In this document: piece by piece, positions 9,063 through 16,265 of the stretch
How positions within the stretch are numbered: position 1 is the stretch's first letter
Layout of the letters: every line of letters begins with the position of its first letter
Source of the DNA: a virus
Length of the DNA: 25,662 bases
Direction: 5' to 3' (one strand)
Virus record (IMG/VR): IMGVR_UViG_3300036715_000627
Span: 1 to 25,662 of that record
Program-made: the position numbers and the translations under genes
The notes under the pieces: generated by a model
Told to the model about the DNA's origin: nothing
Database searches by the model: none
The model's input: the letters and a program-made list of their open reading frames with translations, nothing else

Positions 9063-9299
9063 ATGGCTTATATGCTAAACACACCGATGGACGTAGCAAG
9101 CATCGTTGACCTATACGACATACCCAACGCAACACTCGACGCGCTGTATATGAGTGGCACCCGCATCAACCATATCCGCGAGTTCACCTCACATGTGGAG
9201 GCAGAGAACTTCTTATTTGAATGTAACCACCACTGCACCGTGGAAGACTACAGCGACCCAGACATGGGCGCGTTTATCATCGTGATGTGGGAGGCGTAA
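9063..9299 (+). CDS. Small acidic hypothetical protein (78 aa)
   Basis: First gene after promoter P3. ATG at 9063 with GGAGA 5 bp upstream; an in-frame TTG at 9051 overlaps the ribosome site and is rejected. The protein (MAYMLNTPMDVASIVDLYDI...) is acidic and compact, ending DMGAFIIVMWEA. It is not a family I recognise. The stop codon overlaps the start of the next gene by one base (TAATG), so the two are translationally coupled. Confidence 0.65.
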   Translation: MAYMLNTPMDVASIVDLYDIPNATLDALYMSGTRINHIREFTSHVEAENFLFECNHHCTVEDYSDPDMGAFIIVMWEA

Positions 9300-9754
9300 T
9301 GAACATGCCTCGTAAACCCACCACAAACGCCGCCAGAACGCCCAATCGCTCCGGCAATACCAACACAGCCAACAGTGTGCCAGAACACCGTACAGCCTCA
9401 ACACCGACCTCGCAGACCCACATGGTTGTGTCCTTCGGGTGGAGTAGCAGATACTTGCTACCCATTGAAGCGGCGCTAGATTTACAACGTATCATGGCGC
9501 GGTCGATACGATTAGACTGCGCGTGCAACTTAGTGGGGAACCACGACCTATGGGTGCGTAGCGCATCGAACATAGATGTGGTTGTAAACTTCGTATCCGT
9601 GGACGATGAGTACGCCGTGGACAGAACCACGGCAGATATAGACATCATTGAGTATGCCACAGCGTACAAAACCACAAAAGAACTGGGCGGAAACGACGCA
9701 GTAGCAGGGCTAACCTTCGCCAGATACATAGCAGAAAAAGGAGAGGCAGCATGA
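9299..9754 (+). CDS. Hypothetical protein, 151 aa
   Basis: The ATG at 9299 overlaps the preceding stop (TAATG), with GGGAGG 5 bp upstream; an in-frame GTG at 9287 is less likely. Residues 1-40 are a disordered Thr/Asn/Pro/Arg stretch, and part of it is coded by a copy of the 20-bp palindrome (NSVPEHRT). The rest is a folded-looking domain with VVSFGWSSRYLLPIEAALDL and a C-terminal helix (AGLTFARYIAEKGEAA). No motif gives a function. The disordered head could have been added by insertion of the repeat. Confidence 0.65.
   Translation: MNMPRKPTTNAARTPNRSGNTNTANSVPEHRTASTPTSQTHMVVSFGWSSRYLLPIEAALDLQRIMARSIRLDCACNLVGNHDLWVRSASNIDVVVNFVSVDDEYAVDRTTADIDIIEYATAYKTTKELGGNDAVAGLTFARYIAEKGEAA
9372..9391 (+). 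repeat. 20-bp palindrome copy 7, inside a gene (imperfect)
   Basis: ACAGTGTGCCAGAACACCGT. It has two pairing faults in RNA (A.C at 3/18, G.A at 8/13) and shares the GAACAC variant with the coding copy at 11145. Confidence 0.8.
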
Positions 9755-10218
9755 GAGTCCCACAGCAGATAGCAAAACATGCCGCGGATGTAATAGTAAC
9801 ATTCGACCCAAGCACTTGGTCAGTGAGGCTACATAACGCGGTAGCCAAGAACCTACGAGGCGGACTCATAAGCGGCAATGGCTCTGCCGCACAGATAGCC
9901 GTCGCGTACAGGCAGAGCGTCAACGCACCCACGGTGTACACATACGGGTACGGCGGGGTATGGTGGGCTAACATACCCAAGGAGCACGACCTTTGGGACC
10001 AGCTAACGGATTTAGTGACCACTGTACAGCTACGTGGTGAAACTCGCAATCGCTACTGGATGGACAGGATGGACGGAGTGCAGGCGGTGATTGCCGAGCG
10101 CCGGCCAAGTGGCGGCGTGTACTACGGAGACAAAGAGGACGTGGCCGCGATAATACGTCCGACGCTACCCGAGATAGAGATGCCTACTGGTGTCTTTACC
10201 CTCAGCTACAAGCAGTAA
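9751..10218 (+). CDS. Hypothetical protein, 155 aa
   Basis: ATGA overlap with the preceding gene and a strong ribosome site (AAAGGAGAG). The protein has a mixed alpha/beta look, with aromatic segments TVYTYGYGGVWWANIPKEHD near residues 60-80 and RNRYWMDRMDGVQAVIAERR near 98-118. I recognise no domain and see no catalytic motif, signal peptide or membrane segment. It is followed directly by a palindrome copy and then the DUF3150-like gene, so it belongs to the P3 operon. Confidence 0.65.
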   Translation: MRVPQQIAKHAADVIVTFDPSTWSVRLHNAVAKNLRGGLISGNGSAAQIAVAYRQSVNAPTVYTYGYGGVWWANIPKEHDLWDQLTDLVTTVQLRGETRNRYWMDRMDGVQAVIAERRPSGGVYYGDKEDVAAIIRPTLPEIEMPTGVFTLSYKQ

Positions 10219-10221
10219 CCC

Positions 10222-10241
10222 ACGGTGTGCCAGCACACCGT
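10222..10241 (+). repeat. 20-bp palindrome / RNA hairpin, copy 8
   Basis: ACGGTGTGC-CA-GCACACCGT, perfect arms in the G-C form. Lies 3 bp after a stop codon and 21 bp before the start of the DUF3150-like gene. Confidence 0.92.
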
Positions 10242-10262
10242 ACAAACATAAGGAGCAATATC

Positions 10263-15014: not shown

Positions 15015-15228
15015 CCAGTTACCCCGGTGGGATAAAACCACAGACCACCGCAGCCGATACGTTACCCGACCAGACACGTGGGTATCGGCGGGTGCGGTGT
15101 GGTTCAGCCCAGCTAGCGGGATGTGGGACGCACATGTGCGGGGCGTCATGCCGAGCGAGATACAATTCGCGACCGAAGCAGAAGCCAAGGCGTGGGTGGA
15201 GGTGACGGCGGGATTGATAGGAGCCTAA
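15004..15228 (+). CDS. Small 'WVE-T' paralogue 2 (74 aa)
   Basis: Starts 11 bp inside the VWA gene with GGGGAG upstream. The product has RWDKTTDHRSRYVTRPD near the start and ends FATEAEAKAWVEVTAGLIGA. It shares the C-terminal A..WVE.T..L helix, preceded by F.T.E, with the next gene (FDTKEDAMRWVEATVVL). Function unknown, but tandem duplication next to the VWA gene suggests that these proteins serve the same module. Confidence 0.7.
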   Translation: MSNDQLPRWDKTTDHRSRYVTRPDTWVSAGAVWFSPASGMWDAHVRGVMPSEIQFATEAEAKAWVEVTAGLIGA

Positions 15229-15229
15229 C

Positions 15230-15469
15230 ATGAAAACATGGTGGAGTGTGCTGCGTGGCGGGGGGTATGAGTATGTACGAACGTACCCGATTAAATTTGC
15301 GAGTAAGAAGCATAGTATACGACTGGCGATTGTAGCGGGTTGCCGCGACAGTGACACAATGCAGGTACACTACTCAGCTAAGATTCGCGGCAACGAGGCA
15401 GTGCAGTTCGATACCAAGGAGGATGCAATGCGCTGGGTCGAGGCTACGGTGGTACTGCAACAAGAATGA
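15230..15469 (+). CDS. Small 'WVE-T' paralogue 3 (79 aa)
   Basis: Begins one base after the preceding stop, with TAGGAG upstream. The product (MKTWWSVLRGGGYEYVRTYP...) ends VQFDTKEDAMRWVEATVVLQ and is the closest relative of the gene before it. The stop codon TGA shares its last base with palindrome copy 14. I see no catalytic motif. Confidence 0.7.
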   Translation: MKTWWSVLRGGGYEYVRTYPIKFASKKHSIRLAIVAGCRDSDTMQVHYSAKIRGNEAVQFDTKEDAMRWVEATVVLQQE

Positions 15470-15488
15470 CGGTGTGCTGGCACACTGT
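15469..15488 (+). repeat. 20-bp palindrome / RNA hairpin, copy 14
   Basis: ACGGTGTGCTGGCACACTGT, starting on the last base of the preceding stop codon and 30 bp before the next ATG. Last intergenic copy in the window. Confidence 0.92.
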
Positions 15489-15518
15489 ATGGAAATGCTA
15501 TTTAACTAGGAGATTGAC

Positions 15519-16265
15519 ATGAGACTATACTGGAAACTACAAGGGATTTACAACGGCAAGCAAGCATACAAGACTGATCGGGCTATACCACGGGAGAACA
15601 ACTGCCGCGTCAGTAGCTTTACAGATGACGAGGGCAAGCCTGCGTATCGAGTAAAACTCCACGGCAACACCATTATTGAGGCGTATAGCACACACTTCAT
15701 GGTGACCAACGCAGGCTGGGCGACACCAACCACGCACGACCGTATATGGAGCATAGCCGACGTGAGGATATTCAATGACTCGAGGTGCAAGTTCCGTGAC
15801 ACGTATAGAATATACGACAGGAGCAGAGGCAAGGCGCTACCGATGCCGAGGGCAATTCTGCTACACTATGGTACCCGCCGCGTGTTCGATGAGTGTGTAC
15901 AGTCGGACTACATAGTGGCGGTGGCGCCAGAGTCGCGCAAAGCCTACACGGCGCTGTGCAAGCGAGCATGGAATAATCTGGCTACGCGTATCGCGATTGG
16001 TGAGCTTAGCGGTATTGCCCCCGACACGGTATATCAATCGCGAGAAGCTAGCTTGGAGCTACTGCAACGCATTGCAGATGGAGAGTTCCTAGAGCGGACG
16101 GAAGTATTGAAGCTGTTTAACAGCAATGCGTGGGGCACGATAGACCTAGACGACCCACTAGCGGACGCCAAGACAATGTGGAAAACGATAGTAAATAACG
16201 TGCGGGATGCGTACCATACAGCCCACGACGGATACAATACAGAGGAGATTAAAAATGGCGAGTAA
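15519..16265 (+). CDS. Hypothetical protein, 248 aa
   Basis: ATG at 15519 with TAGGAG 6-7 bp upstream. Basic N-terminal half (MRLYWKLQGIYNGKQAYKTD, then DVRIFNDSRCKFRDTYRIYD) and a helical C-terminal third (SLELLQRIADGEFLERTEVL) that ends acidic. I recognise no domain. Its hairpin-bearing leader groups it with the AAA+/VWA operon. It overlaps the next gene by 11 bp. Confidence 0.7.
   Translation: MRLYWKLQGIYNGKQAYKTDRAIPRENNCRVSSFTDDEGKPAYRVKLHGNTIIEAYSTHFMVTNAGWATPTTHDRIWSIADVRIFNDSRCKFRDTYRIYDRSRGKALPMPRAILLHYGTRRVFDECVQSDYIVAVAPESRKAYTALCKRAWNNLATRIAIGELSGIAPDTVYQSREASLELLQRIADGEFLERTEVLKLFNSNAWGTIDLDDPLADAKTMWKTIVNNVRDAYHTAHDGYNTEEIKNGE

What the first reader, a model, noticed from the sequence alone, without database searches (positions are those of the whole stretch)
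9063..16265. AAA+ / metallopeptidase-VWA / DUF3150-like cassette of unknown purpose
A DUF3150-like gene, a MoxR-type ATPase and an HExxH plus VWA protein lie in one region with shared hairpin leaders, two promoters and at least six unrecognised small genes. MoxR/VWA pairs act as chaperones or metal-insertion machines in bacteria (RavA-ViaA, NorQ-NorD, CbbQ-CbbO). What the phage remodels is not known. The set of hairpin-punctuated cistrons suggests a multi-subunit machine made in defined ratios, used for host takeover, anti-defence or virion protein maturation. The DUF3150 call rests on remembered motifs.
Basis: partly seen in the sequence, partly recalled or inferred. Interest (0 to 1): 0.72.

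Follow-up and report, generated by a model that had tools for sequence, protein, structure and literature searches.

The report
Phage AAA+/VWA-peptidase/DUF3150 machine
This phage carries a three-gene ATP-driven protein-remodelling (possibly protein-cutting) machine that turns up again and again in unrelated phages and, in a sister form, in over a thousand plasmids (mostly conjugative) beside DNA-replication and recombination genes; its function is untested, and in this branch of phages a catalytic-site acid of the motor appears to have moved to the neighbouring strand.

Summary
Window 10263-11225, 12397-13518 and 13821-15014 encode a DUF3150 relative, a MoxR-clade AAA+ ATPase, and a HExxH metallopeptidase fused to a MIDAS-bearing VWA domain (DUF2201_N + DUF2201). 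The set is not chance. Of 64 distinct viral loci fetched through the VWA gene alone, 63 also carry the ATPase and 45 carry DUF3150. The same triad occurs on Burkholderiales plasmids. True Pfam DUF3150 proteins sit with a CobS/NorQ-like ATPase and a CobT/NorD-like VWA protein on conjugative plasmids, next to ssb-bet-exo, radC and primase genes.

The ATPase/VWA pair is already known (N4 gp24/gp25, core genes of N4-like phages; a jumbo-phage pair described in 2021). What I found no report of is DUF3150 as a recurrent third member with two different VWA lineages, and a Walker B aspartate that is Gly in the window's clade and is always accompanied by an Asp two residues before the sensor-1 Asn (12 of 12; never otherwise).

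The small genes and hairpins belong to this phage group, not to the machine. Most likely it remodels or cleaves proteins during phage DNA replication or host takeover; the substrate is unknown. Virion maturation is less likely, cobalt chelation unlikely.

The parts
8941..8969 (+). sigma-70 type promoter, TTGACA-17-TATAAT, start of the rightward arm
   Evidence: 12/12 consensus match
10263..11225 (+). DUF3150-family protein, 320 aa
   Evidence: tblastn to MinM2 DUF3150 1e-19; hhalign 6.5e-67 to plasmid relatives, 2e-8 to Pfam members; pN/pS 0.06; model pLDDT 90
11634..11662 (+). second sigma-70 type promoter, inside the cassette, upstream of the ATPase
   Evidence: 12/12 consensus match
12397..13518 (+). 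MoxR-clade AAA+ ATPase, 373 aa (N4 gp24 / phrog_1297 type); Walker B reads VVFIGE (Gly102), sensor-1 strand reads ADGN (Asp138, Asn140)
   Evidence: pN/pS 0.01
13821..15014 (+). HExxH metallopeptidase + VWA protein, 397 aa (N4 gp25 / phrog_1314 type; DUF2201_N + DUF2201)
   Evidence: pN/pS 0.06
16255..16539 (+). 94-aa protein just downstream, kept at the same place in the window's ATPase clade; possible clade-specific accessory
   Evidence: found in 24 loci, same strand, 1.2-2.7 kb past the start of the VWA gene; pN/pS 0.17; no family match
9063..10218 (+). three small genes (9063-9299, 9299-9754, 9751-10218); the two tested (9299, 9751) are private to this phage group
11236..12324 (+). three small genes (11236-11637, 11729-11884, 11881-12324); the two tested (11236, 11881) are private or nearly private to the phage group
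13518..13757 (+). small gene between ATPase and VWA, private to the phage group, extra copies in L002
15004..16265 (+). three genes (15004-15228, 15230-15469, 15519-16265); 15519 is private to the phage group; the first two show no purifying selection against L002

Best explanation
The three core genes encode one AAA+ remodelling machine. The MoxR ATPase forms a ring. The VWA domain of the third protein docks on the ring and captures substrate through its MIDAS metal site. The fused HExxH domain cuts, or was built to cut, the captured substrate. DUF3150, with its long helices, is an optional adaptor or scaffold between ring and substrate. It works in the early/middle phase together with the phage's DNA polymerase and exonuclease, most likely remodelling or clearing protein complexes on replicating or recombining element DNA, or host proteins that obstruct it. 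Shown by computation here: the three families, their conserved linkage, strict conservation of both metal motifs, the DNA-metabolism neighbourhood, and presence in phages and plasmids. Inferred: ring and complex formation, proteolysis, the role of DUF3150, and the substrate.
For: Linkage: 63/64 and 45/64 loci. The order ATPase-DUF3150-VWA is also found on plasmids and bacterial contigs. True DUF3150 lies in a parallel MoxR/DUF3150/CobT-VWA triad. On a conjugative Vibrio plasmid the neighbourhood is ssb-bet-exo-ATPase-DUF3150-VWA-radC-primase; on IncC pR148 ssb-bet-exo lies inside the triad. In phages, the DNA polymerase is on the same strand in 40/40 loci and an exonuclease in 25/25. HE..H is kept in 77/78 and MIDAS in 78/78. 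ATPase pN/pS is 0.01, lower than terminase at 0.04. The best structural matches are NorQ-NorD complexes. N4 gp24/gp25 are middle genes and core genes of N4-like phages (PMC4193335).
Against: No protein of these families has been assayed in a tailed phage, as far as I could find. Neighbourhood shows association, not substrate. DUF3150 is missing from 12 near-full-length genomes that carry the other two genes, so it is not essential to the machine. Deletions near bet/exo in SXT (s067, s068, s070; probably this triad, an inference) cut transfer by at most 10-fold (PMC2791158). Near the N4 gp24/gp25 homologues of roseophage RPP1 lie four virion-protein genes (PMC4193335).
Confidence: 0.48

Rival explanations
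1. Virion-assembly chaperone-protease: the machine folds and trims structural proteins, as proposed for the MoxR/metallopeptidase-vWA pair of jumbo phages and by analogy with ATV p618/p892.
For: Published proposal (PMC7824862). ATV p618 is a virion component, interacts with other virus proteins and with the VWA protein p892 (PMC4124505). RPP1 virion proteins are encoded near the gp24/gp25 homologues.
Against: The cassette sits with replication genes, never on the terminase strand in the loci tested. The triad is carried by plasmids that make no virions. The published scheme rests on analogy.
Confidence: 0.2
2. Anti-host or anti-defence (or superinfection-exclusion) machine: the VWA-peptidase recognises a host defence or regulatory complex and the ATPase dismantles it.
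For: Shared by phages, conjugative plasmids and probably ICEs, which face the same defences. Rightward arm with strong host-type promoters. MoxR-vWA couples occur in bacterial conflict systems (PMC7159879).
Against: No PADLOC match for the window's core proteins. Strict conservation (ATPase pN/pS 0.01) is unlike a fast-evolving counter-defence gene. Core status in N4-like phages across hosts suggests a housekeeping role.
Confidence: 0.2
3. Viral CobST: the pair works with host CobN to raise cobalamin synthesis.
For: Proposed for tailed viruses of archaea and bacteria (PMC8651126). The plasmid sister triad has CobS-like and CobT-like members.
Against: The window VWA protein matches DUF2201, not CobT, and carries HExxH. 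The ATPase has no CobS match. No CobN seen in the window. N4, which has the pair, grows on E. coli K-12, which lacks de novo corrin synthesis (own knowledge).
Confidence: 0.04
4. The three genes are linked only by operon inheritance and do not form one machine; DUF3150 is an unrelated passenger.
For: Order varies (ATPase-DUF3150-VWA 32, DUF3150-ATPase-VWA 11, ATPase-VWA-DUF3150 2) and DUF3150 is often missing.
Against: DUF3150 travels with MoxR plus VWA in two different VWA lineages and on plasmids; re-ordering while staying linked speaks for function together.
Confidence: 0.08

Closest known systems
N4-like phage gp24/gp25 (phrog_1297/phrog_1314)
   Same: MoxR-like ATPase next to a metallopeptidase-VWA protein, middle/replication region; family matches 4e-40 and 3e-78
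   Different: I found no report of DUF3150 there; the window has DUF3150 first and the Walker B Asp shifted
MoxR + metallopeptidase-vWA pair of group 2.2 jumbo phages (PMC7824862)
   Same: same two-protein architecture
   Different: described without a third component; proposed for virion assembly
AAA ATPase-DUF3150-VWA module of conjugative plasmids (pCAR1 ORF101-103, IncC pR148; probably SXT/R391)
   Same: same three-part logic, beside DNA-recombination genes in pR148 and a Vibrio plasmid
   Different: VWA protein is CobT/NorD-like without the DUF2201 metallopeptidase; ATPase is CobS/CbbQ-like; DUF3150 only remotely alike
NorQ-NorD, CbbQ-CbbO, RavA-ViaA
   Same: AAA+ MoxR ring plus VWA partner
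   Different: not known to have a HExxH domain or DUF3150; they mature or activate host enzymes; the window ATPase has no CbbQ_C match
Acidianus two-tailed virus p618/p892
   Same: viral MoxR ATPase with a VWA partner
   Different: virion component of an archaeal virus, tail development; no peptidase domain

Membership tests
Pfam DUF3150 (PF11348) | score above the curated cut-off (24.9 bits) | tested here: not met
   14.3 bits for the window protein; 12 of 49 phage relatives match at E<0.1, best 8e-8
Pfam DUF3150 (PF11348) | homology to accepted members by profile comparison | tested here: met
   hhalign 95%, E 2.2e-8 over 227 columns; viral fold hits include a named DUF3150 protein, TM 0.74-0.80
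Pfam DUF3150 (PF11348) | context: in one gene group with a MoxR-type ATPase and a VWA protein | tested here: met
Phage MoxR / metallopeptidase-VWA pair (phrog_1297/1314) | both family matches, HExxH and MIDAS intact, genes close together | tested here: met
MoxR clade of AAA+ | Walker A Lys, sensor-1 Asn, Arg finger | tested here: met
   K33 100%, N140 100%, R158 96%
MoxR clade of AAA+ | helix-2 insert | tested here: met
   model shows strands 67-71 and 78-82 inserted before the Walker B strand; read from the secondary structure only
MoxR clade of AAA+ | Walker B Asp-Glu | tested here: not met
   Gly102-Glu103; an Asp at 138 two residues before the sensor-1 Asn
Cobaltochelatase CobST | CobT and CobS family matches | tested here: not met
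   no CobT, CobT_C or TIGR01650 match
NorQ/CbbQ | CbbQ_C domain | tested here: not met
   no match
RavA-ViaA | RavA triple-helical and LARA domains | tested here: not met
   no such family match
MoxR-vWA ternary conflict systems (VMAP, iSTAND, FtsH, beta-propeller) | the named third component | tested here: not met
   third component is DUF3150; bpMoxR only 11 bits; no PADLOC match
ATP-dependent protease | proteolytic activity dependent on ATP | not testable with these tools
   needs biochemistry

The most novel reading that the evidence does not exclude
A previously unrecognised three-part AAA+ protease/remodeller, held together by DUF3150, serves DNA replication or recombination (for example by clearing DNA-bound or cross-linked proteins) in phages and conjugative elements alike. 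In the window's clade the Mg-coordinating Walker B aspartate has been moved to the neighbouring sensor-1 strand without loss of activity.
Probability: 0.25. Interest if true: 0.8.

Novelty: new variant of a known kind. Interest (0 to 1): 0.55.

Why it matters
The triad is in many phages, and its sister DUF3150 is in 1168 of 72,556 plasmid records, yet no paper in the searched library mentions DUF3150 at all. Placing both forms in one frame gives a testable common function, tied to DNA metabolism rather than virion assembly or vitamin B12, and makes phage N4 a ready laboratory model for the ATPase-VWA pair. The paired Walker B/sensor-1 change is a compact natural experiment on which residue a AAA+ ATPase really needs at its metal site.

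Tried and rejected
- Near-identity search of phage records with the region: nothing.
- Rfam and tRNA scans of the window: nothing.
- DUF3150 alignment as a viral-contig probe: too little conserved.
- PDB sequence and fold searches for DUF3150: no match better than chance.
- VWA profile against PDB: only chance hits to short stretches.
- Defence library: none for the window's core proteins.
- Hairpins as part of the machine: rejected, since they are found only in this phage group; the leaders fold no better than shuffles in most cases (z -2.0 to +0.2).
- PHROG name 'HNH endonuclease' for phrog_1314: rejected as a mislabel; the window protein is metallopeptidase + VWA.
- Walker B Gly as decay of a dead ATPase: unlikely, pN/pS 0.01 and paired Asp gain.
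- Coordinates of the predicted models were not available to scripts, so the distance from Asp138 to the Mg site was not measured.

Full report
WHAT IS THERE. The window is a 25.7-kb virus record, probably a fragment. Terminase, portal-like and scaffold-like genes point left; the cassette, an A-family DNA polymerase (22179-24059) and an exonuclease (24882-25565) point right. The VWA protein carries Pfam DUF2201_N and DUF2201. The ATPase is phrog_1297. The 320-aa protein falls below the Pfam DUF3150 cut-off on its own (14.3 against 24.9 bits), but profile comparison links it to plasmid relatives (E 6.5e-67) and to genuine Pfam members (95%, E 2e-8).

THE SET IS REAL. I fetched viral contigs through the VWA gene only and looked for the other two with profiles. 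Of 64 distinct loci with at least 2.5 kb before the VWA gene, 63 have the ATPase and 45 have DUF3150. Order is ATPase-DUF3150-VWA in 32, DUF3150-ATPase-VWA in 11 (the window's type) and ATPase-VWA-DUF3150 in 2. In 19 records with the pair but no full DUF3150 nearby, a whole-record search found it in none except a 41-residue remnant in one; 12 of the 18 negatives exceed 50 kb. So DUF3150 is frequent but optional. One phage, Tunturi_3, has a DUF3150 relative with no ATPase or VWA gene detected in the stretch read.

BEYOND PHAGES. The same triad lies on Burkholderiales plasmids and bacterial contigs: all ten loci found through a plasmid DUF3150 protein have the other two genes. Genuine Pfam DUF3150 genes occur in 8 of 398 Pseudomonadota genomes. 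In several of these they lie beside an ATPase with AAA_5 and CbbQ_C domains and/or a CobT-type VWA protein. pCAR1 shows ATPase-DUF3150-NorD-like. A Vibrio plasmid shows ssb-bet-exo-ATPase-DUF3150-VWA-radC-primase, with small genes between. IncC plasmid pR148 shows ATPase-ssb-bet-exo-DUF3150-VWA. A DUF3150 probe of this type matches 1168 of 72,556 plasmid records, 978 of them predicted conjugative. Literature adds that pCAR1 ORF100-103 are conserved in R478, Rts1, SXT and R391 (PMC2642839), and that deletions of SXT s067, s068 and s070 beside bet/exo lowered transfer at most 10-fold (PMC2791158). That these SXT genes are the triad is my inference. Bacterial chromosomes also hold the two-gene form: the eight strong DUF2201_N loci from genomes without the triad each have the ATPase next to the VWA gene.

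POSITION AND TIMING. In 40 of 40 loci where the DNA polymerase relative was found it is on the strand of the VWA gene; the exonuclease likewise in 25 of 25; the terminase is opposite in 7 of 7. Loci overlap in places, so these counts include repeats of the same contig. Two perfect sigma-70 matches precede and split the cassette. N4 gp24/gp25 are middle genes and core genes (PMC4193335; PMC7650795). All this speaks for an early or middle role in DNA metabolism or takeover. Against it, RPP1 encodes virion proteins near its gp24/gp25 homologues, and a virion-assembly role has been proposed for the jumbo-phage pair (PMC7824862).

HOW IT PROBABLY WORKS. MoxR rings with VWA partners remodel proteins; in NorQD the VWA MIDAS is needed for target maturation but not for ring binding (PMC9976466). 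Here the VWA MIDAS residues are invariant in 78 relatives and HE..H is kept in 77, so both metal sites are under selection. I infer capture by the VWA domain, ATP-driven remodelling, and cleavage by the HExxH domain. DUF3150 folds confidently (pLDDT 90) into a small beta region and long helices with no PDB match. An adaptor role is a guess.

THE WALKER B CHANGE. The window ATPase has Gly102 where Walker B has Asp, and Asp138 two residues before the sensor-1 Asn140. Across the aligned phage ATPases, 9 with Gly all have this Asp and none of the 65 others with a readable Walker B does (one more row, L003, is truncated there). Three further clade members agree. In trees built without these columns, the pattern needs three changes at each site, read as one gain with two paired reversions (L005, L023). 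Only two or three independent events exist, so a formal sign test cannot be significant. In AAA+ proteins the sensor-1 strand lies next to the Walker B strand (PMC9599734), so a moved metal ligand is plausible, but it was not shown structurally here.

WHAT IS NOT PART OF IT. Of the ten small genes around the core genes, the six searched (9299, 9751, 11236, 11881, 13518, 15519) are private or nearly private to this phage group, and the palindrome is found only in the window and its close relatives. A 94-aa gene at 16255-16539, at the edge of the finding, is kept across the ATPase clade (24 loci) and is a better candidate accessory than any of them.

VERDICT. A real, conserved machine; the pair is known, while the DUF3150 third part and the Walker B shift appear unreported as far as these searches reach. 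Function remains inferred.

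Noticed in passing
window 6462-6481, 7020-7039, 7986-8005, 8077-8096, 8138-8157, 9005-9024, 9372-9391, 10222-10241, 11145-11164, 11697-11716, 12047-12066, 12335-12354, 13768-13787, 15469-15488, 22375-22394: About 15 copies of a 20-nt palindrome in both orientations of its centre, in leaders and inside genes; kept at matching places in L002, absent from other relatives. Other phages (L007, L008, L023) have their own repeated palindromes.
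   Followed up: partly
window 16255-16539: 94-aa protein without family match that accompanies the triad across the window's ATPase clade.
   Followed up: partly
window 13518-13757, 15004-15228, 15230-15469: Three small proteins share an A..WVE.T-like ending and look like paralogues; L002 carries extra copies of two of them; two of the three show no purifying selection.
   Followed up: no
window 8868-8934: Three direct repeats of about CGTTTCTATTTGG spaced 20 and 30 nt just upstream of the strong promoter at 8941; possible operator sites.
   Followed up: no
window 18487-18981: HNH endonuclease (phrog_99, 9e-64) with no match in the close relative L002; looks like a recent free-standing homing-type insertion.
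   Followed up: no
window 13821-15014 (PHROGs phrog_1314): The metallopeptidase-VWA family is labelled 'HNH endonuclease' in PHROGs, and this name has spread into many phage records.
   Followed up: yes
window 22179-24059: DNA polymerase gives a weak match (E 0.003) to the aminoadenine-incorporating DpoZ model, alongside stronger ordinary polymerase matches.
   Followed up: no
window 408-594: Twelve-base tandem repeat, about nine to ten near-perfect copies, near the left end on the structural side.
   Followed up: no
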